DNA from: Verrucomicrobiota bacterium
GTDB lineage: Bacteria > Verrucomicrobiota > Verrucomicrobiia > Chthoniobacterales > JAFAMB01
Reading direction: 5' to 3'
Length of the DNA stretch: 46,496 bases
Assembly: GCA_019236675.1 (NCBI GenBank)
Contig: JAFAIO010000485.1
Span: 1-46,496, forward strand
The position numbers and the translations under genes are program-made. The stretch's first letter is position 1. Every line of letters starts with the position of its first letter. The notes below the pieces were generated by a model. It searched no databases and was not told the DNA's origin. It saw only the letters and a program-made list of their open reading frames with translations. This document shows, in pieces, positions 10,809 through 34,770 of this stretch.

Positions 10809-11534
10809 GTGATAAAAACTGAAGAGCTTCCGCCATGGAAACGGCTCGTTGATTTAATTTGTATTCTTGTGAGTCTGCCAGTTTGGGCAGGCGTTTTCCT
10901 TGCAGTTGCTATCTGGATCAAGCTTGTGTCTCGGGGTCCCCTCTTCTTCTGTCAGGAACGGGTAGGGTACAGCGGAAGACAGTTCAAAATGTACAAATTC
11001 AGGACGATGGAAGTTAACGTCGAGACGCTTAGCCACGAGTTATATCTGCAAAGTCTTATCAAGGGTGATGGCCCGATGACCAAATTGGATGCGTCAGGTG
11101 ATCCACGGATTATTTTTGGTGGACGCATTCTCCGAGCCCTCGGGTTAGATGAATTGCCTCAGTTGTTCAATGTGCTGAGGAGAGACATGAGTTTGGTCGG
11201 TCCGCGACCATGTACGCCGACCGAACGTAAGTGTTATGAAGGCTGGCAACAGGAGCGATTCAACGCCGTGCCGGGCTTAACGGGATATTGGCAGGTGAAT
11301 GGAAAGAACAAGACCACATTTCGACAGATGATCGAGATGGACATCTATTACTCGCGCAATAAATCATTTCTGTTAGATGCAATGATCCTCCTAAGAACGG
11401 CTCCTGCGATAGTAGGGCAAGTTCTTGAGGCACGGGCTTGGCGACCCCGTCGCGAGATTAAACAAAGCCCGGCTTCCCAGCCTGCCAGCAGGCCGTTCGT
11501 TGAACCTGTATTTCGTTCCGGGAGCGAGGCGTGA
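10809..11534 (+). CDS. Polyprenyl-phosphate sugar-1-phosphate transferase (initiating EPS sugar transferase)
   Basis: ORF 241 aa with GTG start; GPLFFCQERVGYSGRQFKMYKFRTM, DELPQLFNVLRRDMSLVGPRP, PGLTGYWQVNG motifs of the bacterial sugar transferase family. Confidence 0.95.
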   Translation: MIKTEELPPWKRLVDLICILVSLPVWAGVFLAVAIWIKLVSRGPLFFCQERVGYSGRQFKMYKFRTMEVNVETLSHELYLQSLIKGDGPMTKLDASGDPRIIFGGRILRALGLDELPQLFNVLRRDMSLVGPRPCTPTERKCYEGWQQERFNAVPGLTGYWQVNGKNKTTFRQMIEMDIYYSRNKSFLLDAMILLRTAPAIVGQVLEARAWRPRREIKQSPASQPASRPFVEPVFRSGSEA

Positions 11535-13693: not shown

Positions 13694-13797
13694 GGAGAGA
13701 ACGCGATTATACGAGCGGGTAGCGCCGTACCGAAGACGTGCCCGCAAATCCCATTGTGGCCGGAAATCCGGCCAAAGTTTTTTTAGAAAAGCTGAAA
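13694..13797 (+). pseudogene. C-terminal remnant of a hexapeptide-repeat acyltransferase (frameshifted)
   Basis: Frame A GENAIIRAGSAVPK then frame B (D)VPANPIVAGNPAKVFLEKLK; together this is the typical left-handed beta-helix acyltransferase C-terminus, split by an apparent 1-nt loss near 13733-13737. Confidence 0.75.
13757..13784 (+). terminator. Candidate intrinsic terminator (hairpin plus T7)
   Basis: TGGCCGGA-AA-TCCGGCCA then AAG TTTTTTT. Confidence 0.4.
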
Positions 13798-14922
13798 ATG
13801 CAAATCAAAGTACCGTTTCTTGACTTGTGGTCGCAACATCTTCCGTTGATGAGCGAGTTCAGTCAGGCCATTCAGGAGGTAATCGAGAGCTCCGCATTTG
13901 CCGGCGGGCCATTCGTCGCTGCTTTCGAAAGGGACTTCGCCGCTTATTGCGACATTCCGTACTCGATTGGCGTTGGTTCCGGCACAGAGGCGCTCTGGTT
14001 GAGCTTATTGGCCTGTGGCGTTGGTTCTGGGGACGAAGTGATCACGGTTCCGAGTACGTTCATGGCCACAGCCGAGGCGATCACTTATTGTGGAGCGCGT
14101 CCGGTATTCGTCGACGTGGACGAACGAACCTACACGATGAATCCGGACGCGCTGAAGAATGCGCTAACCTCCAAAACCAAAGCGATCATACCGGTCCATC
14201 TGTTCGGACAACCCGCGGATATGGATCCCATTCTGGAATTCGGGCGTGAACACGGTCTCCACGTGATCGAGGACGCGTGTCAAGCCCACGGCGCTACCTA
14301 TAAAGGGAAACGTGTCGGCACGTTCGGTGACACCGCGTGCTTCAGTTTCTATCCTGGAAAGAATCTCGGCGCGTTCGGAGAAGCGGGGGCGATCGTTACC
14401 AGCAGCGCCGAGTTAGACCAAAAGCTTCGAGTGTTCAGGGACCACGGTCAGGAACGAAAGTACTTTCACTCAGTCATCGGCTGGAACTGTCGCATGGACG
14501 GAATTCAGGCGGCGGTCCTTAGGATCAAGTTGCAGCAACTCGAAGCAGCCAACCAACTGCGGCGTACCCACGCCGTCCAGTACGACGCTGGTCTGGGTGA
14601 ATTCGATGGTGTAATCACGCCAGCGCAGGCGTCTTATGCTCGGCATGTTTACCACATCTATGCCATTCGGGTGCGTAACCGAGACGAAACGATACAAAGC
14701 CTTACGGACCAGGGAATCGCAACCGGCATTCATTACCCCGTGCCCGTCCATTTACAAGAGGCCTATCAAAGCCTTGGCTATACACGCTATTCGTTCCCAA
14801 TTGCTGAACGCTGCGCGGCTGAATTTGTGTCGCTACCGATGTATCCCGAATTAACTCATTCCCAAATAGAACAGGTGATCGACGCTGTGAAAGAAGCTGT
14901 TGCTGGAGGCGTGGAGGTTTAG
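13798..14922 (+). CDS. DegT/DnrJ/EryC1/StrS family aminotransferase (WbpE-like)
   Basis: Internal ATG at 13798 (MQIKVPFLDLWSQH); [71 protein letters not shown]. Confidence 0.95.
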   Translation: MQIKVPFLDLWSQHLPLMSEFSQAIQEVIESSAFAGGPFVAAFERDFAAYCDIPYSIGVGSGTEALWLSLLACGVGSGDEVITVPSTFMATAEAITYCGARPVFVDVDERTYTMNPDALKNALTSKTKAIIPVHLFGQPADMDPILEFGREHGLHVIEDACQAHGATYKGKRVGTFGDTACFSFYPGKNLGAFGEAGAIVTSSAELDQKLRVFRDHGQERKYFHSVIGWNCRMDGIQAAVLRIKLQQLEAANQLRRTHAVQYDAGLGEFDGVITPAQASYARHVYHIYAIRVRNRDETIQSLTDQGIATGIHYPVPVHLQEAYQSLGYTRYSFPIAERCAAEFVSLPMYPELTHSQIEQVIDAVKEAVAGGVEV

Positions 14923-17004
14923 ATGGATAACGAAGACTTGCCGATTGTGGCACCGCAGAACCGCGAGACCTTGCATCTCGCACCCGAGTACGGTGCGGCG
15001 GCCGATTTTGAGGAGCGGCCAAACCAATCCAGTTTCGGTCTGCATGACATCCTGTTCATGCTGTTTCGGCACAAATGGAAAATTATTTTCTTTACAATAG
15101 CCGGCTTCATTGCGGCTGCCTTCGTCTATTTTGAGGTCCCGCCTGCATACGAATCGGAAGCTAAGCTTCTTGTCCGCTACGTGATGGACCGAGGGGCTGT
15201 AGACGGCCTGGACGCTCAGGTTAAGACACCGACGGCTTGGGATTCTAATCTTCTCAATTCTGAGGTTCAGATCTTGACCAGCTCAGACCTGATACGCCAG
15301 GTAGCAGAGTCAGTATACGCAAAGAAATCGGTTTCCGGTTCCGCAGATAGAGGCACCGTTGATACAATATCCGAAACCATTGGAAAAGGTCTGCAAGTGT
15401 CTGCGCTAAAGGATGCCAACATTATTTCTCTCGCCTTTACGAGCAGTGATCGGAATCTCCCCATGCCGGTCTTACAAGAGCTGGTAAAACGCTATTTTGA
15501 TAAGCATTTGGAAGTTCATCGCTCAACTGGTGCGTTCACTTTTGTGGCGCAAGAGACGGCCGATTTGAAAAAGAAATTGGACGAGACGGAAGGAGAATTG
15601 AAACAGCTGAGGGAAAGCGCCGGAATTATCTCCCTTGAAGAAGCCAAAAAAGATCTCGCCAGCGAAATTGGGAAAACCCAACAGGACTTGGATACGGCCG
15701 AAGCCGAACTAGCCGCGCAGCGGGCTCGAGTTAAGGATCTAGAAAAGTCGCTGGCTCTGCCTGAAAACGCACAGCCTACCGTCCCTGCCCAGCCGGTAAC
15801 CGGCGATACTCAAGAGAAATACAAAGCCCTTATTGCCCGGTTGACTCAACTGCAAAAGACCGAGACTGAACTTCTTTTGAAGTACACTCCGGAGAGTCCG
15901 ATGGTAAAGGTAAAGGCCGATCAAATTGCCCAGCTCGAAAAGCAACGCAGCGAGCTGGAAACAACCTATCCAGCCTTACTTGGTACGGTCCAAGGACAAC
16001 CGAATATAACATCCGACAGAGCAACTCTGGCTGGACTGGAGTCCAAAGTACAAGCGCTCAACGGCCGCATGACCGATCTGCAAGCACGGGTGAAAACCGT
16101 TCAGGAGGTAGCGCCGCGCATCGAAGAACTCCAGAGAAAAGAGGAAGTCGAGGAAACTAATTACAAACATTCCGAGGCAAGTCTGGAAAAGGCTCGGATC
16201 GACGAAACGCTTGACCCATCCAGGATGCCAAATATCAGCGTTGTCCAAACCCCTTTACCTGCGGGACAGGTAAAAAGGAATACGGAGAAAGTCGTGCTCG
16301 GCCTCGCGGGAGGTGGGTTGTTTGTGGGGGTCGCCCTGGCGCTGCTGATCGAAATGTTTATAGATCGTACTGTCAAGCGGCCGCTCGAAATCGAAAATCA
16401 GTTGCGTATACCTTTGTTGCTTTCGATTCCGCATCTGACTTTCGATCGCCGACGGTTACCTTTGCGCAATTCGGGTGACGCGGGGGAGATACAACATCGG
16501 AGGAAGTTAGATGTTTCCGGCGCAAATGGTGACGATTTAATTAGGCCGTTTTGTGAAGCCATTCGAGATCGCCTGGGACTGTTCTTCCAAATAAATAACA
16601 TGGCTTACAAACCGAAGCTGGTAGCCGTAACCGGGCTGGCGGCAAATGCGGGATCGTCCACCATTGCTGCCGGACTAGCGGACGCTCTGGCAGAAGCCTC
16701 TGAGGGGAAGGTGCTGTTGGTCGATAAGCTGATATCTCCAAAAGGCTTTTACAATACTCTAGAGGAGTTCAAGCGGAGCGATCTTGACTATGTGGTGTTT
16801 GACATGCCCTCGCTCGGGGACACCAGTGCAACTCTTCCTCTGGCCGGCTTTATGGATACCGTGTTGCTCGTGGTAGAGGCGGAAAAGAGCAACCGAAACG
16901 CGGTTAAACGCGCCTATGCTCAGCTGGCGGCCAAAACGAAGGTTTCGGTAATCGTTAACAAGATCAGGTCTTACGGTCCCAAATGGCTTGAGGGCGATTT
17001 TTGA
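14923..17004 (+). CDS. Wzz-type chain-length determinant fused to a degenerate BY-kinase/CpsD-like domain
   Basis: ORF 693 aa; N-terminal Wzz TM/coiled coil (HDILFMLFRHKWKIIFFTIAGFIAAAFVYFEVPPAYESEAKLLVRYV), C-terminal VTGLAANAGSSTIAAGLADALAEASEGKVLLVDK lacking the P-loop Lys. Confidence 0.9.
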   Translation: MDNEDLPIVAPQNRETLHLAPEYGAAADFEERPNQSSFGLHDILFMLFRHKWKIIFFTIAGFIAAAFVYFEVPPAYESEAKLLVRYVMDRGAVDGLDAQVKTPTAWDSNLLNSEVQILTSSDLIRQVAESVYAKKSVSGSADRGTVDTISETIGKGLQVSALKDANIISLAFTSSDRNLPMPVLQELVKRYFDKHLEVHRSTGAFTFVAQETADLKKKLDETEGELKQLRESAGIISLEEAKKDLASEIGKTQQDLDTAEAELAAQRARVKDLEKSLALPENAQPTVPAQPVTGDTQEKYKALIARLTQLQKTETELLLKYTPESPMVKVKADQIAQLEKQRSELETTYPALLGTVQGQPNITSDRATLAGLESKVQALNGRMTDLQARVKTVQEVAPRIEELQRKEEVEETNYKHSEASLEKARIDETLDPSRMPNISVVQTPLPAGQVKRNTEKVVLGLAGGGLFVGVALALLIEMFIDRTVKRPLEIENQLRIPLLLSIPHLTFDRRRLPLRNSGDAGEIQHRRKLDVSGANGDDLIRPFCEAIRDRLGLFFQINNMAYKPKLVAVTGLAANAGSSTIAAGLADALAEASEGKVLLVDKLISPKGFYNTLEEFKRSDLDYVVFDMPSLGDTSATLPLAGFMDTVLLVVEAEKSNRNAVKRAYAQLAAKTKVSVIVNKIRSYGPKWLEGDF

Positions 17005-21765: not shown

Positions 21766-22884
21766 ATGAGAGTCCCCTTTGTTGACCTACACTCACAGTA
21801 TTTAAGTATTAAGTCTGCAATCGATGAAGCGATCGCGGGAGTAATTGCAGAATCGGCCTTTGTTCGGGGCCGGCATGTGGATGCGTTTGAGGAGGCCTGG
21901 GCCAATACTCTGGGCGTCAAACACTGTGTTTCCTGTGCTAATGGAACCGACGCGCTTTATATCGCGATGCGCGGATTGGGGGTCAAACCAGGAGATGAAG
22001 TGATCACCACGGCTCACTCGTGGATTTCAACGTCAGAGACGATCACCCAGGCGGGAGCCCGCGTAGTATTCTGCGATACGGACAACAAGACATTTACATT
22101 AGATCCTGGTTCGATTGAATCGAAGATTACTCATCGAACAGTTGGGATCATTCCTGTGCATCTCTATGGTCAGCCTGCGGATATGGATCCCATCATGTCG
22201 ATTGCAAAAAAGCACAATCTCTGGGTGATCGAGGATTGTGCTCAGGCGCACCTGGCGCGATACGGTGGGAAGCTGGTCGGGACCTTCGGAAATGCTGCGA
22301 CTTTTTCCTTTTATCCCGGCAAGAATCTGGGCGCATTCGGCGATGCTGGCTGTATTATCACAAACGACGACAGCCTGGCCGATTGGACTACGACTTATGC
22401 CCGGCACGGCGGAAAAGGCGAGCACGTGATTGAAGGAATCAATAGCCGGCTCGACGGGTTGCAAGCGGCTATACTAAAGGTGAAACTTCCACATTTGCCC
22501 GCGTGGACAGAAGCGCGCCGTCGGGTGGCGTCACAATATGATAAATTGTTTTCCGGCATTGAAGGATTGCTTACACCGGAAGTCGCTCCAGGCCGTGACC
22601 ATGTTTATCATCTTTATGTCATTCGGACCGACGAGCGAGACGCTCTGAAGAAACATTTGACTGACGCCGGCATATCGACTGTGCTTAGCTATCCGAAGGC
22701 GTTGCCCTTCTATCCTGCATATGCCTACCTTGCGCACGAACCGGAAGACTTTCCTGTGGCCTACGCCAATCAGTCGAGAATACTTTCGTTACCAATCTAT
22801 CCAGAGATTGGTGATGAAATGGTTGCGTACGTAGTCGACAAGATCGCCGAGTTCCATTCACGGTTAGCTCCGGTGTCAGCATAA
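21766..22884 (+). CDS. DegT/DnrJ/EryC1/StrS family aminotransferase (WbpE-like), second copy
   Basis: ORF 372 aa; [74 protein letters not shown]. Confidence 0.95.
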
Positions 22885-23032: not shown

Positions 23033-24406
23033 ATGCACCTGCCGCCGATAGTCGCGCTGTGGCTTACATTTGGGTTGATCTTCTTCCTTTTTCGGCGGCA
23101 AGTCCTGGAAAAGAGTGAGGTAAGTCCCGCCCTATGGCTCCCTTTGATCTGGCTTCTGATCAATGGGTCTAGGTCCCCCGGTCAGTGGCTCAACCTGGAC
23201 GCCGGCGCGGTAATAACATCAGGGGAAGACGGAAGTCCGCTTGACGCTACTTTTTATTTTGCATTGATTGTAGCCGGGTACGCTGTACTCAGGCGAAGAG
23301 GCGTGGACCTACTGACGTTTGCTCGAAACAATCGCTGGCTGACGGCTTTTCTGATGTATAGCTTAATTTCAATCCTTTGGTCGGACTTTCCCCTTGTCGC
23401 TTTTAAACGGTGGATCAAGATCCTAGGGCACCCGATCATGGTTCTTGTGATTTTAACAGATCCCGTTCCTCTGGAGGCAGTAAAGAGACTGCTGAAGAGA
23501 ATCGCTTATGTGTTGGTGCCTCTCTCGATCTGTTTCATAAAATATTTCCCGCAATACGGTCGTGGGTTCGACTCTTGGACAGGCCAAGGTTTCAACGGCG
23601 GTGTGGCCCTAAACAAGAACGAACTCGGTCTCTTGTGTCTGATCTTTGGGATCTTCTTTTTTTGGAGCATACTGCAAACGCTTAAAATCAAAAATCGCCG
23701 GACGCGCCGAAAAGAGCTGATCTTGGATATAGGTTTCTTTGTGTTGAATTGGTGGCTTCTAGCTGAGGCGTCGAGTGCCACTTCGTTAGTCACGATGCTC
23801 TTGGGGATCGCCGTGATCTGGTTCGTCGGACTTAGGTTTGTTGACAAGCGGTACGTCGGTTTTTACCTGATCGCCGCCGTACTAGTGTTCGCCGCTTTGG
23901 AACCGTTCTTTGGGATTTACACGCAGGTCGTTAAAGGACTTGGCCGGAATCTCAATCTGACAGACAGAACCGATATCTGGCAGTCGGTTTTGAAGCTTCA
24001 AGATAACCCAATTTTTGGTAGGGGATTCGAAAGCTTTTGGTTAGGCAGCCGGCTGGACACGCTTTGGGTGCAATTCCCTTTTCACCCCATACAGGCTCAC
24101 AATGGATACATTGAGACCTATCTTAATCTGGGATGGATCGGGATCGCGCTGTTGGTCGGGCAGTTTGTCGGAACTTTCCTGAAGATCCAGCGAGAACTAG
24201 TCAGGCGATTTGAGTTTGCTCGCCTTAGGTTAGCGTTTCTTCTGGCGATTATCGTTTTCAACTATACTGAAGCTGCCTTCGTAAACACTTCCTTCGTCTG
24301 GACGATGTTTTTCCTGATTGCGGTTGACTATCCAAACGCCCGTCAGCACTTCTCGAGGTCTGTTCCTAGCCAAACGAGGCGAAAATTGGTACCGGCCGGA
24401 GTGTAG
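23033..24406 (+). CDS. O-antigen ligase/polymerase (Wzy/WaaL-like) membrane protein
   Basis: ORF 457 aa; multi-TM; NKNELGLLCLIFGIFFFW, GRGFESFWLGS...QAHNGYIETYLNLGWIGIALL. Confidence 0.9.
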   Translation: MHLPPIVALWLTFGLIFFLFRRQVLEKSEVSPALWLPLIWLLINGSRSPGQWLNLDAGAVITSGEDGSPLDATFYFALIVAGYAVLRRRGVDLLTFARNNRWLTAFLMYSLISILWSDFPLVAFKRWIKILGHPIMVLVILTDPVPLEAVKRLLKRIAYVLVPLSICFIKYFPQYGRGFDSWTGQGFNGGVALNKNELGLLCLIFGIFFFWSILQTLKIKNRRTRRKELILDIGFFVLNWWLLAEASSATSLVTMLLGIAVIWFVGLRFVDKRYVGFYLIAAVLVFAALEPFFGIYTQVVKGLGRNLNLTDRTDIWQSVLKLQDNPIFGRGFESFWLGSRLDTLWVQFPFHPIQAHNGYIETYLNLGWIGIALLVGQFVGTFLKIQRELVRRFEFARLRLAFLLAIIVFNYTEAAFVNTSFVWTMFFLIAVDYPNARQHFSRSVPSQTRRKLVPAGV

Positions 24407-24470
24407 CCTCAAAGGTTTCCTTGACTGATATTATCGCTGTCGTCGGAGAACATTACCTTTGGATACTGAA

Positions 24471-25523
24471 ATGGATGCAAAGTATCTAGTTTCGCCCAGT
24501 GATCGCATCTTGGTAACCGGGTCGAGCGGATTCATTGGTGCGAAAGTCGTTGAAACCGTTCTGGAATATGGTTTCACAAATGTCCGCTGTTTCGTACGAC
24601 CTTCTAGCGATTTGAGTAGGCTGAAAGAGATACTCGGTCGGTCTCAACGCGGTGACGGCGTCGAGCTAGTTTGTGGCGATCTACTTTCGCGAAATGATTG
24701 CGAGAAAGCGGCCGATGGTGTTTCAGTTATTTATCATTTGGCTGCTGGATTTGATAAGTCCTTTGCCGGAGCATTCATGAACTCGGCCCTGGCGACTCGC
24801 AACCTGATGGAAGCGTTTATGCAACACGGGGAGCCGAAGCGTTTTGTGAATGTTAGCTCTTTTGCCGTTTACTCGAACTTGAAATTGAAACGAGGGGCAG
24901 TGCTTGACGAATCCTGCCCGCTAGAAGATGCCCCGCAGGAGCGTTATGACGCTTACGGGTTCGGCAAGCTGAAACAGGAAGAGTTGGTCGAGGAATATGG
25001 GAACAAACATAAATTGTCGTATGTTATCCTGCGACCGGGAACCGTGTTTGGACCCGGCAAGCGGGATTTAAGCGGTCGCATTGGAATCGACACCTTCGGC
25101 TTCTTTATCCAAGTCGGCGGCTCAAACCTCTTGCCGCTGACGTTTGTGGACAACTGCGCGGAAGCGGTCGTATTGTCAGGTTTAAAGGCTGGCGTGGATG
25201 GGGAGATCTTCAACGTTGTCGATGACCAGCTTCTCACCAGCGGGCAATTTCTTCGCGCGTACAAGAAGCGCGTGAAGCCTTTTTTCTCGGTGCGAATTCC
25301 ATACGCATTAGCATATTGGGTATGCGCCCTGTGGGAAAAGTATTCCAAGTGGTCGAAGGGGCAGCTCCCGCCGGCTTTCAATCGTCGGCGTTGTGCTGCT
25401 GAATGGAAAGGTAACCGTTATTCGAATCGGAAATTGCGAGAACGGTTGGGTTGGAGACCGAGAGTAAACCTGGACAGGGCGTTGGCTGCGTTTTTGGCGC
25501 AATTCCAATCACAGGAAAGTTAA
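24471..25523 (+). CDS. NAD-dependent epimerase/dehydratase (extended SDR)
   Basis: RILVTGSSGFIGAKVVETV, YHLAAGFDKSF, YDAYGFGKLKQEELV; ATG at 24471 preferred over TTG at 24459. Confidence 0.92.
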   Translation: MDAKYLVSPSDRILVTGSSGFIGAKVVETVLEYGFTNVRCFVRPSSDLSRLKEILGRSQRGDGVELVCGDLLSRNDCEKAADGVSVIYHLAAGFDKSFAGAFMNSALATRNLMEAFMQHGEPKRFVNVSSFAVYSNLKLKRGAVLDESCPLEDAPQERYDAYGFGKLKQEELVEEYGNKHKLSYVILRPGTVFGPGKRDLSGRIGIDTFGFFIQVGGSNLLPLTFVDNCAEAVVLSGLKAGVDGEIFNVVDDQLLTSGQFLRAYKKRVKPFFSVRIPYALAYWVCALWEKYSKWSKGQLPPAFNRRRCAAEWKGNRYSNRKLRERLGWRPRVNLDRALAAFLAQFQSQES

Positions 25524-25526
25524 TTC

Positions 25527-26645
25527 ATGCTTCGCATCGCTATCGTTGGCTGCGGTAAGATTGCCGATCAGCATGTTCAGGCTATCTCGCGTGTCCCGGA
25601 CTGCCAGATCGTGTCGGTGTGCGACCGGGAGTTTTTGATGGCCCGGCAACTTGGCGAACGTGCGGGCGTCTCTCATTGCTTTTCCGATTTAGGGGAATTG
25701 CTGAAGACGACTTCTCCGAATGTTGTTCATATTACCACACCGCCCCAGAGTCATTATCTACTCGCCAGGCAGTGCCTCGAGTCAGGAAGCCATGTCTATC
25801 TGGAAAAGCCGTTTACGGTGACGGCCAGCGAAGCGAAGACCCTGCTTCAACTTGCTGAAACGCGCGGCCTAAAAATTACGGCCGGTCACAACTATCAGTT
25901 TACGCCCGAGATGCTCGAAATGCGTCGACTGATAGAGCAGGGATTTCTCGGCGGGAAACCCGTGCATCTGGAAAGCTACTATTCCTATGATTTAGGAGAC
26001 GCAACTTATGTTGCGCCGCTTCTAGGGAATCGCTCCCATTGGGTGAGGCAGCTACCAGGTCAATTGCTTCATAATGTCATCAGCCATGGGATCGCGAGAT
26101 TAGCTGAATTCCTTGATGACGGTCTCGTCGAGATCACAGCCAGCGCGCACCAGAGCGACAGGCTTCGAAACCTCGGTGGAGAAGAAGTCCTTGATGAACT
26201 GCGCGTGATGATTCGCGACAAGAGTGGCACGACCGCTTTCTTCTGCTTCTCCACTCAGATTCAACCAGGTCTGAGTGAGTTCCGGGTTTGTGGACCGCTC
26301 AACTCGATTCTGGTGGATCAAGTCGCTGGCAGCCTGATCCGGAATCAGAAGCGGGCTTGTAAGAGTTATCTTACGTTTTTCTTACCGCCTTTGTGGAGTG
26401 CGATGGAGCACCTCCGGAACGGGCGACGAAATATTCTTAATTTCTTAGGAAGGAAACTGTACCAGGATTCCGGAATGACTGAACTGGTTCGCCGTTTTTA
26501 TCAAAGCATCCGAGATGGCACTCCTTTGCCAATCCCGCACCGCGAGATCCTGCTAACGGCTCGAGTCATGGATGAAATTTTCTCCCGAATCTATTCGGGA
26601 AGCGAAGTAGCTGAAAAAGAACAAACCGAGTTTTCTGTGGTATGA
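25527..26645 (+). CDS. Gfo/Idh/MocA family oxidoreductase
   Basis: ORF 372 aa; MLRIAIVGCGKIADQHVQAI, VVHITTPPQSHYLLARQCLESGSHVYLEKPFT. Confidence 0.92.
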   Translation: MLRIAIVGCGKIADQHVQAISRVPDCQIVSVCDREFLMARQLGERAGVSHCFSDLGELLKTTSPNVVHITTPPQSHYLLARQCLESGSHVYLEKPFTVTASEAKTLLQLAETRGLKITAGHNYQFTPEMLEMRRLIEQGFLGGKPVHLESYYSYDLGDATYVAPLLGNRSHWVRQLPGQLLHNVISHGIARLAEFLDDGLVEITASAHQSDRLRNLGGEEVLDELRVMIRDKSGTTAFFCFSTQIQPGLSEFRVCGPLNSILVDQVAGSLIRNQKRACKSYLTFFLPPLWSAMEHLRNGRRNILNFLGRKLYQDSGMTELVRRFYQSIRDGTPLPIPHREILLTARVMDEIFSRIYSGSEVAEKEQTEFSVV

Positions 26646-27553
26646 ACTACGTCCTAATTACTTCCGCTAGGAATGAGGAGAAGTTCATTGAAAGCACAAT
26701 TCGTTCGGTCGTCGCCCAGACTCAACTTCCTGAAAGATGGATTGTTGTGGACGATGGATCGACGGATAGCACGGCGCTGATCGTCGATAGATATTTGAAG
26801 TCTTACCCTTGGATAGAACTACTCGCGCGACCGAATCGCCACGATCGTAGTTTCGCCGGGAAAGCTCATGCCGTAAATGCGGCGGTTGAGCGTCTGAAGG
26901 GCCTTGAAGTCGACGTGATCGGGAATCTCGACGCGGATGTTTCCTTCGAGCCCGGCTATATGGCGTTTGTGCTGGAGAAGTTCAAAGAGGATGCCGAGTT
27001 AGGCGTGGCCGGGACCCCCTTTACTGAGGAGGGATACGATTCGAGAAAAGACAGCTTTGAAGGAGAGAACTACGTGGCTGGACCATGCCAACTCTTCCGA
27101 TACAGCTGCTTTCGGCAGATCGGCGGATACGTAGCCAATAAGGCAGGTGGCGTCGACTGGATCGCAGTTATGACAGCTCGCATGCAAGGCTGGAAAGTGC
27201 GCTCGTTTCCTGAAAAAACCTTCCATCATCACAGATCCATGGGAACCGCAGAAAGGGGCGCGCACTCTGCACTCTTTTCGTATGGGGAAAAGGATTATTA
27301 CCTTGGCGGTTCACCTGTGTGGCAAATTTTTAGAGTAGCTTATCGAATGACCAAGAAACCCGTCATTACAGGCGGTCTAGCCCTCCTTTTGGGTTACTGC
27401 TTTGCGGCTCTGCGGCGAATGGAACGCCCGGTGACGCCCGAGTTGATGCGGTTTCACCGGCGAGAGCAAATGAAAAAACTGAAAGCAGTGCTTCGAACGC
27501 TCTTGAGCTTCAAGAAAGTGGACAATTTCTCCGTAGCGACTGCAGAGAGGTAG
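26642..27553 (+). CDS. Glycosyltransferase family 2
   Basis: ORF 303 aa; NEEKFIESTIRSVVAQTQLPERWIVVDDGSTDSTALIV, IGNLDADVSFEPGY; 4-nt overlap with the previous gene. Confidence 0.93.
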   Translation: MNYVLITSARNEEKFIESTIRSVVAQTQLPERWIVVDDGSTDSTALIVDRYLKSYPWIELLARPNRHDRSFAGKAHAVNAAVERLKGLEVDVIGNLDADVSFEPGYMAFVLEKFKEDAELGVAGTPFTEEGYDSRKDSFEGENYVAGPCQLFRYSCFRQIGGYVANKAGGVDWIAVMTARMQGWKVRSFPEKTFHHHRSMGTAERGAHSALFSYGEKDYYLGGSPVWQIFRVAYRMTKKPVITGGLALLLGYCFAALRRMERPVTPELMRFHRREQMKKLKAVLRTLLSFKKVDNFSVATAER

Positions 27554-27555
27554 CT

Positions 27556-28791
27556 ATGTTAGTACAACAGAGGACCGAATCTGATCTGCTGGCGGACAGA
27601 GTTTCATCCACTCTCCTATCCTTTACGGATTGGCTTCAAGCCTTTGGTGAGACTTCATTGGATCACCAAACTTTTTTTGCCGGGCCCGTTGGTGCGTTTG
27701 CCAAATCATTCTATTACCGGAATCCGAAGCTCGGGATTGCCGCTGTCGCTCCGATGATTTTTTGTGAAGCGTTCGTCCCATCGACGCGCCGCTTATTTTA
27801 CTCTCCGGTACGGTTCCCGATAGCTGACGCTCACTATGCAATGGGGTTCGCGTTTCTCTACGAGGCGACCAAGGAAACAGCCTTTTTTGAGCGAGCCATT
27901 CATTTCCTCAATGAACTGGAACAGACCCGGTCTCCCGATTACAAAGAGTATTGCTGGGGCTATCCATTCAACTGGGTCACTCGAAACGGTACGATTAGAA
28001 AACACACTCCCCTGATCACAAGTACGCCCTATGGCTATGAGGCGTTCCTGCACGTTTACCGCCTGGAGCCGCAGGCCGAATGGAAAAGCGTACTCGAGTC
28101 AGTTGCCCGGCACGCAATATCTGATATTAAAGATTTCAAAATCTCGGAAACGACGAGTAGCTGTTCTTATACTCCTTTTGATCAAGGAGGTGTAATCAAT
28201 GCCGCTGCCTATCGTTCTTTTTTGCTAACAAGTGCCTCAAAGCTTCTGGCTAATGATTCGTATTGGAAGATCGCCGAAGGCAATCTGAACTTTGTGCTAC
28301 AGAATCAGAATCAGGATGGCTCCTGGTATTATGCAGTCGACGGGGTCCGTGATTTTGTGGATCACTACCACACTTGTTTTGTGATGAAAGCGCTGGCTAA
28401 GATTCATACCCTGAACGGTCATCAGGGTTGCCTGGAGGCGCTTTCCAAAGGCGTGACTTATTATGTTGCCAACCTTTTCGACAGCGATGGGCTCCCGCGC
28501 CCATTTTCCAAAGCACCTCGTCTGACCGTGTATAAAAGGGAACTTTACGACTGTGCCGAGTGCATAAATTTGTGTCTGCTTCTGCGAGATCGGTTCCCGC
28601 AGTTAAATGAGACCCTGAACACGGTCGTTAGCGGCATTCTGAAAGACTGGATCAAACCGGATGGCTCTTTCCGGTCGCGCCGCCTGCATCTTGGCTGGGA
28701 CGACGTTCCGATGCACCGTTGGGGTCAGTCGCAGATGTTCCGTAGCCTTGCTTACTACCTTCGCGAAGCCCGGCAGGGTTCGCTGCTTTAG
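27556..28791 (+). CDS. Putative alpha/alpha-toroid protein (carbohydrate-active or terpenoid-cyclase-like fold), function unknown
   Basis: ORF 411 aa; repeated helical segments with NQNQDGSWYYAVDG, DHYHTCFVMKALAKI, KPDGSFRSRRLHLGWDDVPMHRWGQSQMFRSLAYYL. Confidence 0.65.
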   Translation: MLVQQRTESDLLADRVSSTLLSFTDWLQAFGETSLDHQTFFAGPVGAFAKSFYYRNPKLGIAAVAPMIFCEAFVPSTRRLFYSPVRFPIADAHYAMGFAFLYEATKETAFFERAIHFLNELEQTRSPDYKEYCWGYPFNWVTRNGTIRKHTPLITSTPYGYEAFLHVYRLEPQAEWKSVLESVARHAISDIKDFKISETTSSCSYTPFDQGGVINAAAYRSFLLTSASKLLANDSYWKIAEGNLNFVLQNQNQDGSWYYAVDGVRDFVDHYHTCFVMKALAKIHTLNGHQGCLEALSKGVTYYVANLFDSDGLPRPFSKAPRLTVYKRELYDCAECINLCLLLRDRFPQLNETLNTVVSGILKDWIKPDGSFRSRRLHLGWDDVPMHRWGQSQMFRSLAYYLREARQGSLL

Positions 28792-28879: not shown

Positions 28880-29899
28880 ATGAGCACCTGCGCTAAATTG
28901 CAACGAGCCGAGATCAGGATAGCTGGCAAAACGGTCTATGTACCGTCGGCAGAGATATATGATCGGACGGTCGTAGTGACCGGTAACTGGTTGCGGATAG
29001 CAGCAGTTAAGGATGAGCAACTAGTACAAGGGGAGATAATCGGCGATCCCAAAGCGTTCGTCGCCAGGATGAGAAGGAGCCACTTGCGAGCGGACATCCT
29101 GACATTCGCGCAGAAGATACCGAATACCGAACCCAAATACCGCTACTGCTTGCAATGGGATAACTGGGCCGCCACGCCCACCACGAGCTTCAGCGATTGG
29201 TGGGAGAAGAGACTGCCGCAAGAGTCCAGAAAGAATGTCCGCCGAGCAGCGAAACGAGGAGTGATAGTCAAAGTTGTCCAATTCGATGACGAATTGGTCA
29301 AAGGCATTCAAAAGATCTATGATGAGACTCCGGTTCGCCAGGGGAGACGCTTCTGGCACTTTGGGAAAGACTTCGAAGCTGTTAAACGAGAAAACGCGAC
29401 CTACCTGGACCGGAGCGAGTTTCTTGGTGCCTACTTCAAAGACGAACTGATCGGTTTCGTTAAGATAGTATATGTTGATCGGATCGCCACTCTCATTCAA
29501 ATCCTGGCAATGAATGAGCACCAGGACAAGAGGCCAATAAACGCCCTCCTGGCGAAAGCGGTTGAGGTGTGTGAAAGCAAGGGTATTGCATGTTTGCTCT
29601 ACGGGAAATACATCTACGAAGGAAACGCAGACAGTGCGTTGACCGAGTTTAAGCGCCGGAACGGATTCGAAGAGATAACCTATCCTAGGTATTTCTTGCC
29701 GCTAAGCCTCAAAGGAAAGATTGCAATCGGGCTGGGGCTTCACAAGGGACTAAAGAGCTTGATTCCTTCATCGGCGATAAGCTATTTGAGACGTCTACGA
29801 TCACAATTCTATGATCGACGGTACGCTGGCAAGGAAAGTCATGAAGACGGCGGACCGTCTGCAGAACAGTCCGTCAGCGAAAAGAATTTGACCACCTAA
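28880..29899 (+). CDS. FemAB/GNAT-like acyl/aminoacyl transferase
   Basis: Internal ATG at 28880; FSDWWEKRLPQESRKNVRRAAKRGVIVKVVQFDDELVKGIQKIYDETPVRQGRRFWHFGKDF, EFLGAYFKDELIGFVKIVYVD, LLYGKYIYEGNADSALTEFKRRNGFEE. Confidence 0.7.
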   Translation: MSTCAKLQRAEIRIAGKTVYVPSAEIYDRTVVVTGNWLRIAAVKDEQLVQGEIIGDPKAFVARMRRSHLRADILTFAQKIPNTEPKYRYCLQWDNWAATPTTSFSDWWEKRLPQESRKNVRRAAKRGVIVKVVQFDDELVKGIQKIYDETPVRQGRRFWHFGKDFEAVKRENATYLDRSEFLGAYFKDELIGFVKIVYVDRIATLIQILAMNEHQDKRPINALLAKAVEVCESKGIACLLYGKYIYEGNADSALTEFKRRNGFEEITYPRYFLPLSLKGKIAIGLGLHKGLKSLIPSSAISYLRRLRSQFYDRRYAGKESHEDGGPSAEQSVSEKNLTT

Positions 29900-29928
29900 C
29901 CCAGATATTTTTAGTTAATTCCCTCAAA

Positions 29929-30003
29929 GCTGGTGTAGCTCAAAGGCAGAGCAGCTGAATCGTATTCAGCAGATGGAGTGTTCAAATCCTCCCGCCGGCT
30001 CCA
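29929..30003 (+). tRNA. tRNA-Thr(CGT)-like, atypical T-arm
   Basis: Manual fold: acceptor GCTGGTG/CGCCGGC, D-stem GCTC/GAGC, anticodon arm GCTGA-ATCGTAT-TCAGC, T-arm GGAG(t)G-TTCAAAT-CCTCC with one bulged T at 29979, encoded TCCA 3' end. Confidence 0.82.
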
Positions 30004-30150: not shown

Positions 30151-32055
30151 ATGTGCGGTATAGCCGGGCAATTTAACTTTGGCAGCCAGGAACAGGTAGT
30201 AGAAGAGCGTGTCCGCCGAATGGCGCGCTCCATCGCGCACCGGGGTCCCGATGATGAGGGATACTTCTTTGATGATAATCTCGGACTAGGTTTCCGGCGG
30301 TTGTCCATCATCGATCTTTCGGGTGGTCATCAGCCTATGTCGGATGCCGAGGAAAGCGTCTGGGTCGTTTTTAATGGCGAAATCTACAATTACCAGGAGC
30401 TGAGGGCAGAGTTGGAGGCGAAGGGTCATCAGCTTCGCACTCGGTCTGACACGGAAGTGATCATCCACGGTTACAAGGAGTGGGGAACCGACGTGTTCAA
30501 CCATTTTAATGGCATGTTTGGTCTAGCCATCTGGGATGTCCGGAAGCGGCGGTTATTGGTCGCTAGGGACGCCATGGGTATAAAGCTAGTCTATTACCGT
30601 ATTTCTGGCGGGTGCCTGACATTCGGCTCGGAGATCCGGGCCGTGTTGGCTGCTGAGGATTCAACTCCGGAAGTCGACCCGGTGGCCCTCAATCTGTTTC
30701 TACGTTTCCGGTATGTGCCGTCGCCGCTTACTATGTTTCAAGGGATCCGCAAGCTGGCTCCCGGGACGATGCTCGTGGTCGAGAATGGCAGATGTAGCGA
30801 GCAGCGTTGGTACAACTGCACGCCTGTTCCTTTTGACAATCCCAAGCAGGACGCCGAGGCGGCTCGGGAATTATTGGACCTTTACAAGGGCGCCGTGCGT
30901 CGCCATCTCCTAAGCGACGTGCCGGTTGGCATTCTGCTGAGCGGCGGTCTCGATTCCGGGCTGCTACTAGCACTGATGAACGAGTATGGCGGGGAATGGC
31001 CAGCTTACACCGTCGGCTACGGCGAGACCTTTGCCGACGACGAACTCGCCGACGCAGCGGAGACCGCGCGGTTGTTAGGGGCAAAACACATTCCGGTGCA
31101 GTTGGACCGCGGAGAGTTTGAGCGATCGTTTCCGAAGATCGTGGATTTCCTGGAGGAGCCGGTCACGTCTTCGAGCGTCGTTCCGATGTATTTTGTGTGC
31201 CAGCGTGCGCGGCAGGATGTGAAGGTGGCTCTGATCGGGCAAGGACCGGACGAATTGTTCGGTGGCTACACTCGGCATCTCGGCGTGCATTACGGAAAAC
31301 ACTGGCGCGGCTTGCCCGGCGGCGTGCGTTCGATCTTGGGTGGTGCGGTCAATCGATTACCTCGCAATGAGGCGCTCAAGCGTGGAGTCCAGTCGCTCGG
31401 CACTGCGGATCGCTTGCAAAGGTATCACAGCGTATTTTCCCTGGCTCCGTTGGAGACGATTGACGGGCTGTTCAAGGATGACGTCCTTCCGCCGAGGCGT
31501 GGCCATGCCATCGTGGAATACTGGCGCGATCTTCTGCCTCAGATGGAGCACGCGGACGAACTGGGCGGCTTTCAAATGCTCGAAGTGCGGTCTTCGCTTC
31601 CGGACGAGCTGCTGATGTTCGGCGATAAAATGTCCATGGCGCATAGTATTGAAGTGCGGGTTCCCTACCTGGATCGCACGGTGGTCGAATTCGCGCAGCG
31701 CCTGGGAGCCCGTTTCATGATCCGCAATGGTGAGCGCAAGTGGCTGCACCGGCGAGTTTGCCGGAGCCTCCTGCCACCACAAATTCTGAAGCGAAAAAAG
31801 CGCGGCTTCGCGGTGAATGTTGTCGATGGCTGGTTCAACTCCACAGTTAGTGGCCGCCTGGCGGAGACGCTGCTCGATGAACAATCGCTGATGTATCGCT
31901 TGCTAAATCCCACCGGTGTACGCCGCCTGCTGAACGACCATCGCTCCAACCGCGCCGACAATCATAAGTTGCTGTTCAGCCTGGTGATGGTCGAGCAATG
32001 GCTGCGCGGATTGCGGCGAAATCAAGAGCACACAGTTCACGTCGGTGGAGCCTAA
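30151..32055 (+). CDS. asnB: Asparagine synthase (glutamine-hydrolysing)/amidotransferase
   Basis: ORF 634 aa; MCGIAGQF N-terminal nucleophile Cys, RGPDDEGYF, GILLSGGLDSGLLLALM PP-loop. Confidence 0.93.
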   Translation: MCGIAGQFNFGSQEQVVEERVRRMARSIAHRGPDDEGYFFDDNLGLGFRRLSIIDLSGGHQPMSDAEESVWVVFNGEIYNYQELRAELEAKGHQLRTRSDTEVIIHGYKEWGTDVFNHFNGMFGLAIWDVRKRRLLVARDAMGIKLVYYRISGGCLTFGSEIRAVLAAEDSTPEVDPVALNLFLRFRYVPSPLTMFQGIRKLAPGTMLVVENGRCSEQRWYNCTPVPFDNPKQDAEAARELLDLYKGAVRRHLLSDVPVGILLSGGLDSGLLLALMNEYGGEWPAYTVGYGETFADDELADAAETARLLGAKHIPVQLDRGEFERSFPKIVDFLEEPVTSSSVVPMYFVCQRARQDVKVALIGQGPDELFGGYTRHLGVHYGKHWRGLPGGVRSILGGAVNRLPRNEALKRGVQSLGTADRLQRYHSVFSLAPLETIDGLFKDDVLPPRRGHAIVEYWRDLLPQMEHADELGGFQMLEVRSSLPDELLMFGDKMSMAHSIEVRVPYLDRTVVEFAQRLGARFMIRNGERKWLHRRVCRSLLPPQILKRKKRGFAVNVVDGWFNSTVSGRLAETLLDEQSLMYRLLNPTGVRRLLNDHRSNRADNHKLLFSLVMVEQWLRGLRRNQEHTVHVGGA

Positions 32056-32106: not shown

Positions 32107-32886
32107 ATGAATAATTCCGTCAAATGGAGAGATTTTTGGGAGGAGAATGCCGCCAAAAGCTGGTCTGATTATGAATATGACCACGGGAAGCTCCGGGAGC
32201 AGGAGATTGAAGATTTATCGAAGCGTGAACTTCTCGCCTTCATCGATCCTCAACCCGCAGATACTATATTAGACGTGGGCTGCGGAACGGGGAGCAATGA
32301 GTTGCTGCTGCACTCAAGGGTTAAGCGTGTGATTGGAATGGACTACACCACCGGCGCTCTTGATCGCTGCCGGCGGCATATTGAAACTTACAAAATAGAA
32401 AATGTGGAGTTAGTCCAGGGAGATGCCACCCAACTTCCGTCGCCCGACCATGCGGTCGATAAGGTTCTATGCATGAGCGTATTTCAATATTTGGACGATG
32501 CCGAAGTGCGAACTGCGCTTAAGGAATTTTCCCGAGTATTGAAGAGCGGCGGTACGCTTGTTCTACACGTGAAGAATAAGTCTTCCCTTTACCTTTCGAC
32601 GTTGTGCGCAGCCAAAAAACTCAAAATGTTTCTCAAGCGGCCAACGAAGTTAGAGCATATCCGTCCCTATCGTTGGTACATAGCCGAGCTAAAGGATGCG
32701 GGCTTCGAAGTCCTAGCTTACAACTCATTTAACATAATCATGATCGAGTTGATCCCCATTAAATGGCGTTTGTTCTTACAAAAATGGGAGCTGAAGCGGC
32801 ACAACAAATTTCCCTTGCGGATTGGCTTTCTGCGCCGGAGCGGAGCTGACCTCAAAATTAAAGCGCGCCCCCTCGCCAAACCGTGA
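32107..32886 (+). CDS. Class I SAM-dependent methyltransferase
   Basis: ORF 259 aa; ILDVGCGTGSNELLL, VLCMSVFQYLDD, FSRVLKSGGTLVLHVK. Confidence 0.9.
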   Translation: MNNSVKWRDFWEENAAKSWSDYEYDHGKLREQEIEDLSKRELLAFIDPQPADTILDVGCGTGSNELLLHSRVKRVIGMDYTTGALDRCRRHIETYKIENVELVQGDATQLPSPDHAVDKVLCMSVFQYLDDAEVRTALKEFSRVLKSGGTLVLHVKNKSSLYLSTLCAAKKLKMFLKRPTKLEHIRPYRWYIAELKDAGFEVLAYNSFNIIMIELIPIKWRLFLQKWELKRHNKFPLRIGFLRRSGADLKIKARPLAKP

Positions 32887-32949: not shown

Positions 32950-34770
32950 ATGTCTGGGATTGCAGGAATCATTCGAAAAACACCACACGAAACGATTGAC
33001 TCCGATCTGCAGCTTATGGTCGAGGCGATGCGGAATGGAACACAATATACGGGGGGGCAGTACAAGGATCCCGAGCTCGGCCTATATGTGGGTTGGATGA
33101 ACCTTCAAGGATCGTTTGCTGATTGCATGCCCCTTGTCAGTCGTCAGAAGGACATCGTGCTGATTTTTCAGGGCGAGAGTTTTCTGGAGGATGAATCTCG
33201 ATCACGGTTGAAGCGCCTTGGCGGCGGCGACGATTCGAATGCTCGGTACCTGATGGAGCTTTACCAGGAATTTGGCGAGGAATTTTTTCTCCAACTGAAC
33301 GGCTGGTTTTCCGGTATCATCGCGGACCTTCGTAAAAGGCGGCTAACGCTTTTCAATGACCGATTTGGAATGGGCAGGATCTACATTCATGAAGGGAAGG
33401 ATGAGTTTATTTTTGGATCGCAGGCGAAATCGTTGCTGAAGATTCGTCCTGATCTGCGGAGCATTGAGGAAGAATCATTGGCAGAACATCTTCGGTACAA
33501 CTGTGTCACGAAGGCCAAGACTCTCTTTAAAGGTATCTCCTTGCTCCCGCCTGGCTCCTGCTGGGATTTTGAGGACAGCGTTCAGCCGAAACGGCGGAGT
33601 TACTTTCATTTCAGCGATTGGGAGAAACAGCCGACCCTTGAGCCCGAGCAATTTTACCAAGCGTTCTCTGAGACAGTTTCACGGGTATTTCCAAGCTACG
33701 CGCGGGGAGCGAATCCTGTGGCTTTTTCCCTCACCGCCGGTCTGGATACGCGAATGATTGCGGCCGCCCTTCAGGAGGGCAATCGATCGGTTCCTTGCTA
33801 CACATTTGGCGGACAGTGGGGGGAATTATTTGACGTCAGCGTTGCCCGGAAGATCGCCAAGGTTAACAACCAGCCATTCGAGGCGATTACCATCGATGGT
33901 CGCTTTCTCACAGGATTCCCGGAATTTGCGCGCAGGGCTATCTATCTTTCGGACGGGACCCACGACGCATTTGGAGCGCATGATGTCTACTTTAATGAAA
34001 CCGCGCGCAAGATCGCACCAATCCGGCTAACTGGGAAATTCGGCAGCGAAGTGGTCAGAATCAGAAGGCTCATGCCTTCGCTGATCTATCCATCCGGTCT
34101 GCTTCAGCCCAGCTTGACATCACTCGTGGAACGGCTGCCATCATACGCGGAGATTAATCCAAACAACCACCCCCTCACCAGAGTCGTCAGCCAAGAGATT
34201 CCGTGGCACGAATTCGGAAGGGTCGCTATCGAACAATCCGAGATCACACTGCGGACACCCTATATGGATAACGAACTTGTGAAACTGATGTACCAGGCTC
34301 CTCTGGCGGTTCGGACGGCCGGTACAGTGCAGGAACAGTACGTGAGGGACAAGAGTCGCGAGCTCGGCACTATTGCGACAAATATGGGCAAATTTGCCTC
34401 TGATAATCGGATGATAACAAAGCTCCTCTACGGAGCGGCGTGGGCCTTGTTCAAGGTTGAGTACATCTATCTCTTTGCGACGCCCCACTGGCTGACACGA
34501 GTTGATCGGACCCTGGCTAAACTAAGGCTGGAGAAAATTTTATCAGGACGGCAGAAGTGGGAGGGTTACCGGCTTTGGATTAAGACGCATTTTTCGGAGT
34601 TCATCCAGGGAATGTTGCTGAATCCACAAGCCAATTACACGCGACATTTTGAGAAGAAGACAGTGGAGCGGATGGTCAGAGGCCATGTCGCGGGAACGCA
34701 TAACTATTTGAACGAAATCAACCGCGCACTCAGCGTCGAATTGATTTATTCGACGTTGCTCAATTCATGA
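32950..34770 (+). CDS. Asparagine synthase-related protein lacking the glutaminase Cys
   Basis: ORF 606 aa; starts MSGIAGII (Ser at the catalytic Cys position), FNDRFGMGRIYIHEGKDEFIFGSQAKSLL, SLTAGLDTRMIAAAL. Confidence 0.88.
   Translation: MSGIAGIIRKTPHETIDSDLQLMVEAMRNGTQYTGGQYKDPELGLYVGWMNLQGSFADCMPLVSRQKDIVLIFQGESFLEDESRSRLKRLGGGDDSNARYLMELYQEFGEEFFLQLNGWFSGIIADLRKRRLTLFNDRFGMGRIYIHEGKDEFIFGSQAKSLLKIRPDLRSIEEESLAEHLRYNCVTKAKTLFKGISLLPPGSCWDFEDSVQPKRRSYFHFSDWEKQPTLEPEQFYQAFSETVSRVFPSYARGANPVAFSLTAGLDTRMIAAALQEGNRSVPCYTFGGQWGELFDVSVARKIAKVNNQPFEAITIDGRFLTGFPEFARRAIYLSDGTHDAFGAHDVYFNETARKIAPIRLTGKFGSEVVRIRRLMPSLIYPSGLLQPSLTSLVERLPSYAEINPNNHPLTRVVSQEIPWHEFGRVAIEQSEITLRTPYMDNELVKLMYQAPLAVRTAGTVQEQYVRDKSRELGTIATNMGKFASDNRMITKLLYGAAWALFKVEYIYLFATPHWLTRVDRTLAKLRLEKILSGRQKWEGYRLWIKTHFSEFIQGMLLNPQANYTRHFEKKTVERMVRGHVAGTHNYLNEINRALSVELIYSTLLNS

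What the first reader, a model, noticed from the sequence alone, without database searches (positions are those of the whole stretch)
28880..30003. FemAB-like transferase followed 29 nt later by an atypical tRNA-Thr(CGT): possible dedicated tRNA for polysaccharide aminoacylation
Seen: a FemAB/GNAT-like CDS ends at 29899 and a same-strand tRNA-Thr(CGT)-like gene starts at 29929, in the middle of an EPS cluster. The T-stem pairs perfectly (GGAGG/CCTCC) only if T29979 is bulged out. Established: Fem-type transferases use aminoacyl-tRNA as donor, EF-Tu contacts the T-stem, and staphylococci have tRNA-Gly species partly diverted from translation for cell-wall synthesis. Inference: a T-stem-altered tRNA co-transcribed with a Fem-like enzyme could be a non-ribosomal aminoacyl donor for decorating the polysaccharide. 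Alternatives: an ordinary tRNA gene placed here by chance, a decaying copy, or a 1-nt assembly error.
Basis: partly seen in the sequence, partly recalled or inferred. Interest (0 to 1): 0.78.

Follow-up and report, generated by a model that had tools for sequence, protein, structure and literature searches.

The report
Polysaccharide enzyme with its own tRNA
A bacterial polysaccharide gene cluster carries an amino-acid-transferring enzyme next to its own odd transfer RNA, and related clusters in several phyla keep the pair, some with transfer RNAs that have lost the anticodon altogether, so these RNAs look built to feed sugars rather than ribosomes.

Summary
A tRNA-Thr(CGU) lies 29 nt downstream of a transferase gene (28880-29899) in a polysaccharide cluster. 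Its T-stem pairs only with one base bulged out. The bulge is not an assembly error: the 23 aligned relatives from independent assemblies keep a bulged T or C with compensatory changes, while all 30 ordinary tRNAs checked in this genome have perfect T-stems. The transferase model matches aminoacyl-tRNA-dependent transferases (Sbb17, FemX, MprF). The transferase-tRNA pair recurs in five phyla. In 213 genomes of the order, every tRNA found by the bulge pattern (6/6) abuts a gene of this transferase family. Genomes examined also have ordinary tRNA-Thr genes. Other branches carry Ala-type tRNAs (G3:U70, A73) or Ser-type tRNAs (long variable arm, G73) whose anticodon loop is replaced by a 3-4 nt hairpin loop (GCAA, GAAA, UUCG and others). 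They cannot decode, but keep what AlaRS or SerRS need; the Thr type keeps G35-U36, which ThrRS reads. Best reading: dedicated aminoacyl donors that avoid translation and supply a Fem-like enzyme, probably decorating an amino sugar. Charging, EF-Tu avoidance and the acceptor remain inferred.

The parts
28880..29899 (+). Fem-like (double-GNAT) aminoacyl-tRNA-dependent transferase, 339 aa; lacks the acetyl-CoA P-loop motif (HxDKxPxNAL instead)
   Evidence: AF2 model pLDDT 89.8; Foldseek best hits Sbb17, FemX, MprF/A-PGS; weak PF02388/PF00583 across the family; motif table
29929..30003 (+). dedicated tRNA-Thr(CGU), gene-encoded CCA at 30001-30003, discriminator U at 30000
   Evidence: ARAGORN, Rfam 49.2 bits, conserved beside the transferase
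29961..29963 (+). anticodon CGU; G35 and U36 (ThrRS identity) invariant in the family, position 34 varies (C, U, A)
29975..29992 (+). T-arm with bulge T29979: GGAG[T]G TTCAAAT CCTCC
30151..32055 (+). asparagine-synthase-like amidotransferase (nearest NCBIfam model: XrtA/PEP-CTERM amidotransferase, below its cut-off); conserved neighbour
32950..34770 (+). second AsnB-like protein (glutaminase domain detected)
32107..32886 (+). SAM-dependent methyltransferase
27556..28791 (+). protein of unknown function directly upstream of the transferase gene
   Evidence: no Pfam or significant NCBIfam match
26642..27553 (+). family 2 glycosyltransferase
25527..26645 (+). Gfo/Idh/MocA oxidoreductase
   Evidence: conserved neighbour
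24459..25523 (+). sugar epimerase/dehydratase
   Evidence: conserved neighbour
23033..24406 (+). Wzy_C/O-antigen ligase-like polymerase
21766..22884 (+). DegT/DnrJ/EryC1 sugar aminotransferase (could supply the acceptor amine)
13738..14922 (+). second DegT/DnrJ/EryC1 sugar aminotransferase
14923..17004 (+). Wzz chain-length determinant
10809..11534 (+). initiating sugar-phosphate transferase (Bac_transf)

Best explanation
The tRNA and the transferase form one functional unit. The tRNA is charged with threonine by the host's ordinary ThrRS, which can use G1-C72, C2-G71, G35 and U36. The distorted T-arm, and in many members a changed D-loop, weakens its use by EF-Tu and the ribosome. The Fem-like enzyme takes the threonine from it and transfers it to an amine in the product of the surrounding polysaccharide cluster, probably an amino sugar made by the DegT aminotransferases. 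In sister branches the same arrangement uses Ala- or Ser-type tRNAs that have lost the anticodon, as AlaRS and SerRS allow. Shown: the structure, the conserved linkage, the predicted fold, and the loss of decoding capacity in the Ala and Ser types. Inferred: charging, EF-Tu avoidance, the transfer reaction and the sugar acceptor.
For: A same-strand tRNA-Thr lies at or just after the gene's 3' end (21-nt overlap to 355 nt beyond it) in nearly every homologue at 47% identity or more, in five phyla. A DNA-pattern scan of 213 genomes, not seeded on the protein, found 6 bulged tRNAs, all beside a family member; a scan of 338 genomes drawn from the phylum found only the window's own. Bulged T-stem with covariation. 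Ordinary tRNA-Thr genes are also present. Dedicated tRNAs of different phyla resemble each other (79-82%) more than the ordinary tRNA-Thr of their own genome (66% in the Beijerinckiaceae). Anticodon-less Ala type with invariant G3:U70 and A73, and Ser type with long variable arm and G73, covarying stems closed by 3-4 nt loops. The fold matches aminoacyl-tRNA-dependent transferases. The acetyl-CoA motif is absent. The cluster holds two DegT aminotransferases, Wzz, Wzy and glycosyltransferases. Identity rules from PMC9976931.
Against: No biochemical evidence of any kind. About half of the wider transferase family has no detectable tRNA nearby, and one close homologue, L071, lacks it, so the enzyme may also use the general pool. 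The window tRNA itself keeps a full anticodon and G18-G19 and could still decode. One linked tRNA-Thr (L083) has no bulge. No transferase-tRNA or acceptor binding was tested.
Confidence: 0.82

Rival explanations
1. An ordinary extra tRNA-Thr gene that helps translation (reads ACG codons) and lies by chance in the cluster.
For: Intact CGU anticodon; the only CGU tRNA-Thr found in this draft genome.
Against: Linkage kept across five phyla with low protein identity; anticodon changes to UGU or AGU, once to an 8-nt loop; redundant with ordinary tRNA-Thr in relatives; sister loci carry tRNAs without anticodons; bulge absent from all 30 ordinary tRNAs checked.
Confidence: 0.06
2. The tRNA is a decaying copy or the scar of an integration event (tRNA genes are common attachment sites).
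For: Odd T-stem and low Rfam score; tRNAs often flank islands.
Against: Strong purifying selection: nearly invariant acceptor stem, 99% paired helices with covariation; sits inside, not at the edge of, the cluster; intact CCA in most copies. The one clearly decaying case (L177) has a broken transferase gene and has lost the bulge.
Confidence: 0.03
3. A cis- or trans-regulatory tRNA-like element (processing site, T-box partner or sensor of Thr charging) for the operon, rather than the enzyme's donor.
For: It lies in the presumed transcript, sometimes overlapping the stop codon; the pseudo-tRNA of B. cereus acts through a T box (PMC3399842).
Against: Preserved aminoacylation identity for three different amino acids; position varies (upstream or downstream, up to 1.2 kb); five tandem copies in L115 fit a dosage need; partner is an aminoacyl-tRNA-dependent fold.
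Confidence: 0.06
4. The neighbouring enzyme modifies the tRNA (for example an acetyltransferase acting on the charged tRNA) instead of using it as donor.
For: GNAT fold; weak similarity to RimI and PaiA acetyltransferases.
Against: Acetyl-CoA motif Q/RxxGxG/A absent; best structural matches are aminoacyl-tRNA-dependent transferases; location in polysaccharide clusters.
Confidence: 0.03

Closest known systems
Staphylococcus aureus non-proteinogenic tRNA-Gly with FemX/FemA/FemB
   Same: Specialised tRNA isoacceptors with EF-Tu-weakening T-stem changes (including A51-U63, also the commonest 51-63 pair here) and altered G18-G19 feed Fem-type transferases (PMC4052509, PMC4810233).
   Different: The reviews describe T-stem base-pair substitutions, not a bulge; target is peptidoglycan; anticodons are kept (own knowledge). 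Here the tRNA gene abuts the transferase gene, sits in polysaccharide clusters, carries Thr, Ala or Ser, and some copies have no anticodon.
Sbb17/Sba18, VlmA, DhpH, PacB, Orf11 (aminoacyl-tRNA-dependent GNAT transferases of natural-product clusters)
   Same: Closest solved fold (Sbb17, 9wqx, E 3.6e-11); VlmA, DhpH, PacB and Orf11 transfer amino acids from charged tRNA to small acceptors (PMC12945691).
   Different: Only about 12-13% sequence identity to Sbb17/Sba18; the review section read describes no cluster-encoded tRNA.
MprF / lysyl- and alanyl-phosphatidylglycerol synthases
   Same: Same double-GNAT fold using aminoacyl-tRNA; some family members match PF09924 weakly.
   Different: Acceptor is a membrane lipid; no dedicated tRNA gene known (own knowledge).
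Bacillus cereus tRNA-Other
   Same: tRNA-like RNA outside translation with a cell-wall phenotype (PMC3399842).
   Different: Poorly charged, has a Trp anticodon and acts through a T box; the passages read give no link to a transferase gene.
tmRNA
   Same: Anticodon-less alanine acceptor with G3:U70 (own knowledge).
   Different: Works on the ribosome and has an mRNA-like part; the RNAs here are full cloverleaves of 70-95 nt.

Membership tests
FemABX / aminoacyl-tRNA-dependent GNAT transferases | Double-GNAT fold matching FemX, Sbb17 or MprF | tested here: met
   pLDDT 89.8; Foldseek top ten hits E 1e-11 to 1e-9, TM-score (target-normalised) 0.46-0.64
FemABX / aminoacyl-tRNA-dependent GNAT transferases | Sequence match to Pfam FemAB (PF02388) above the gathering score | tested here: not met
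   Window protein 11 bits against a cut-off of 24; 28 of 47 family members match at E<1, best 8.7e-6. So 'Fem-like', not filed as a FemAB member
FemABX / aminoacyl-tRNA-dependent GNAT transferases | No acetyl-CoA pyrophosphate-binding motif | tested here: met
   Motif A reads HxDKxPxNAL, no glycine loop, across 47 sequences
FemABX / aminoacyl-tRNA-dependent GNAT transferases | Transfers an amino acid from aminoacyl-tRNA to an amine | not testable with these tools
   needs biochemistry
tRNA-Thr | Cloverleaf with ThrRS identity (acceptor G1-C72, C2-G71; anticodon G35, U36) | tested here: met
   Acceptor G1-C72 and C2-G71 and anticodon G35-U36 in every copy; published identity consists of acceptor pairs and anticodon bases, the specific pairs named from own knowledge
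tRNA-Thr | Standard five-pair T-stem | tested here: not met
   One-base bulge between 52 and 53
translation-evading specialised tRNA (S. aureus tRNA-Gly type) | T-stem and D-loop changes that weaken EF-Tu binding | tested here: inconclusive
   Bulged T-stem and A51-U63 seen; G18-G19 altered in 16 of 23 copies but kept in the window; binding not measured
translation-evading specialised tRNA (S. aureus tRNA-Gly type) | Redundant with ordinary isoacceptors for decoding | tested here: met
   Ordinary tRNA-Thr(UGU) in G000, G003 and G081; UGU, CGU and GGU in the Beijerinckiaceae genome
tRNA-Ala / tRNA-Ser (sister loci) | G3:U70 and A73 (Ala); long variable arm and G73 (Ser) | tested here: met
   identity rules PMC9976931
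tRNA-Ala / tRNA-Ser (sister loci) | Seven-base anticodon loop able to decode | tested here: not met
   3-4 nt loops GCAA, GAAA, UUCG, ACAA, UUUA, UUU close the anticodon stem

The most novel reading that the evidence does not exclude
A new class of gene-linked, non-ribosomal tRNAs, spread between phyla together with their own transferase and serving only as Thr, Ala or Ser donors for polysaccharide decoration. Each has shed what its synthetase does not read, so the Ala and Ser types have no anticodon.
Probability: 0.75. Interest if true: 0.93.

Novelty: new variant of a known kind. Interest (0 to 1): 0.88.

Why it matters
[quoted passage not shown] Here genomes appear to solve it by encoding a private tRNA next to the enzyme, in some branches one that cannot decode at all. 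That makes the question directly testable: each tRNA names the amino acid, the enzyme and the glycan cluster to examine. It also gives natural orthogonal donors for glycan or peptide chemistry, and a warning that tRNA annotation misses or mislabels such genes (ARAGORN calls them '???' or 'Lys').

Tried and rejected
Assembly error at T29979: rejected, the bulge is conserved in independent assemblies. Chance adjacency: rejected. Decay: rejected by covariation. Acetyltransferase reading: disfavoured by motif and fold. A phylum-wide search with the tRNA model was uninformative, because ordinary tRNA-Thr genes also match. Rfam E-value scans and two further covariance models around tRNA-less homologues found nothing. 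Lax ARAGORN thresholds gave only noise there, apart from L103. Plasmids hold no homologue of the transferase. Literature searches for such a system returned no match in the held library. L086 gave a long branch because of stops in its matched region and was left out of the protein alignment.

Full report
What was checked. The window is contig C243 of a 5.87 Mb, 84.7% complete draft genome; its relatives are Verrucomicrobiota. ARAGORN and Rfam both find one tRNA, Thr(CGT), at 29929-30003. The gene before it runs 28880-29899, preceded by an AAGGGA ribosome-binding-like site; the gap is 29 nt. The odd T-stem is real: GGAG[T]G TTCAAAT CCTCC pairs completely only with T29979 bulged.

Is the bulge an error or decay? 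No. Searching relatives by DNA gave the same tRNA behind the same gene in G003 (94% tRNA identity, 65% protein) and in G081 of another family (86% and 54%). An alignment of 23 such tRNAs (20 distinct) is 99% paired in the T-stem with the bulge and 62% without, with compensatory changes at two T-stem pairs; the bulged base is T or C. All 30 ordinary tRNAs checked in the window's genome have perfect T-stems and G18-G19. In 16 of the 23 dedicated tRNAs G18-G19 is altered; the window keeps it. Among linked tRNA-Thr genes only L083 and L177 lack the bulge.

Is the adjacency conserved? A scan of one genome per species for the transferase family gave 51 loci. Nearly every homologue at 47% identity or more carries a tRNA-Thr at its 3' end on the same strand, from 21 nt of overlap to 355 nt beyond the stop codon, in Verrucomicrobiota, Acidobacteriota, Nitrospirota, Thermodesulfobacteriota (Syntrophobacteraceae) and Pseudomonadota (Beijerinckiaceae, a beta-proteobacterium). 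These are mostly metagenome-assembled genomes, so single taxonomic labels may be wrong. L071 is the clear exception. In the tree these Thr loci form a supported set of 22 rows, 19 of them with the tRNA, with L119 separate. The converse test does not start from the protein: a DNA pattern for the bulged arm in 213 genomes of the order found six tRNAs, all six beside a family member, although only 21 of 213 genomes have the family (hypergeometric 4e-7 for co-occurrence alone). Three of the six (G000, G003, G081) were already known and shaped the pattern; the other three were new. A scan of 338 genomes drawn from the phylum found only the window. Dedicated tRNAs from different phyla resemble each other more (79-82%) than the ordinary tRNA-Thr of their own genome (66% in the Beijerinckiaceae), so the pair travels as a unit (inference).

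Is it needed for translation? Ordinary tRNA-Thr genes exist as well: UGU and GGU in the window genome, UGU in G003 and G081 although their dedicated tRNA is also UGU, and UGU, CGU and GGU in the Beijerinckiaceae genome, where the dedicated tRNA is the lowest scoring of 44. Position 34 of the dedicated tRNAs varies (C, U, A) and L090 has an 8-nt loop, whereas G35 and U36 never change.

The decisive comparison. Other branches of the same transferase family carry different tRNAs. Five distinct loci (L108, L115, L117, L170, L171) have an acceptor stem with G3:U70 and A73, the alanine identity; L115 has five identical tandem copies. Four loci (L103, L166, L167, L169) have a long-variable-arm tRNA with G73, the serine identity. 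In two further Ser-branch loci, L105 and L106, the contigs end inside the start of the same tRNA. In all nine distinct RNAs the anticodon loop is gone: the stem is extended and closed by GCAA, GAAA, UUCG, ACAA, UUUA or UUU. The helices covary: 9 of 22 pairs in the Ala type and 6 of 28 in the Ser type change on both sides, and G3:U70 is invariant while neighbouring pairs vary. A model of the Ala type run over the 213 genomes gives four standout scores (65-96 bits against at most 59 for the rest), all beside a family member; three of the four were in the model's training set. According to PMC9976931 serine identity is independent of the anticodon, alanine identity lies in A73, G2-C71, G3:U70, G4-C69 and G20, and threonine identity includes anticodon bases. 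So each tRNA type keeps what its synthetase reads and loses what only the ribosome needs. This pattern is hard to explain except as selection for charging without decoding.

The enzyme. Sequence matches are weak. The AlphaFold model (47-sequence alignment, pLDDT 89.8) matches Sbb17 (9wqx, E 3.6e-11), FemX of S. aureus and Weissella, A-PGS, L-PGS and MprF: nearly all of the best hits are transferases that use aminoacyl-tRNA. The acetyl-CoA motif is missing. GNAT-fold enzymes of this type hand amino acids to small acceptors in natural-product clusters (PMC12945691).

The cluster. It encodes an initiating sugar-phosphate transferase, a NusG-like factor, Wzz, a Wzy_C-like polymerase, several glycosyltransferases, three Gfo/Idh/MocA oxidoreductases, two DegT sugar aminotransferases, epimerases and two AsnB-like amidotransferases around the pair. 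AsnB-like, Gfo/Idh and epimerase genes recur at the other loci. A plausible acceptor is the amine of a DegT-made amino sugar; this is inference.

Relation to known systems. It works like the S. aureus tRNA-Gly/FemX arrangement, in which specialised isoacceptors with weak EF-Tu binding feed the cell wall (PMC4052509; PMC4810233). It differs in gene linkage, horizontal spread, choice of Thr, Ala or Ser, polysaccharide context, the T-stem bulge and anticodon loss. No such system turned up in the papers held, which do not include most subscription journals.

Limits. No expression, charging, EF-Tu or transfer data. About half of the wider family has no tRNA nearby and may use ordinary tRNAs. The window's own tRNA keeps an anticodon, so its exclusion from translation is by analogy and by the bulge.

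Noticed in passing
L115:6878-7348: Five identical tandem copies (period 99) of an anticodon-less Ala-type tRNA directly after the transferase gene.
   Followed up: yes
L077:1361-1381, L080:6967-6987: The transferase stop codon lies 21 nt inside the tRNA gene, so tRNA processing would cut the mRNA before its stop; possible regulation.
   Followed up: no
L105:3946-3963, L106:7956-7973: Contigs end inside the first 18 nt of the Ser-type tRNA at the same place, which suggests that repeats break assemblies and that such tRNAs are undercounted.
   Followed up: partly
L177 (G199): Broken transferase gene next to a tRNA-Thr that has lost the bulge: apparent joint decay of the pair.
   Followed up: partly
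L090:7080-7155: Dedicated tRNA-Thr with an 8-nt anticodon loop, which would be expected to shift frame if it were used by the ribosome.
   Followed up: partly
L083:2184-2256, L084:7343-7417: Linked tRNA-Thr with anticodon AGU (A34), unusual in bacteria; L083 has no T-stem bulge.
   Followed up: partly
L166, L167, L169, L103 T-arm: The Ser-type T-stem GGAGG/CC[T]TCC also needs a one-base bulge, on the 3' strand.
   Followed up: partly
window 27556-28791: 411-aa protein directly upstream of the transferase gene with no recognisable family.
   Followed up: no
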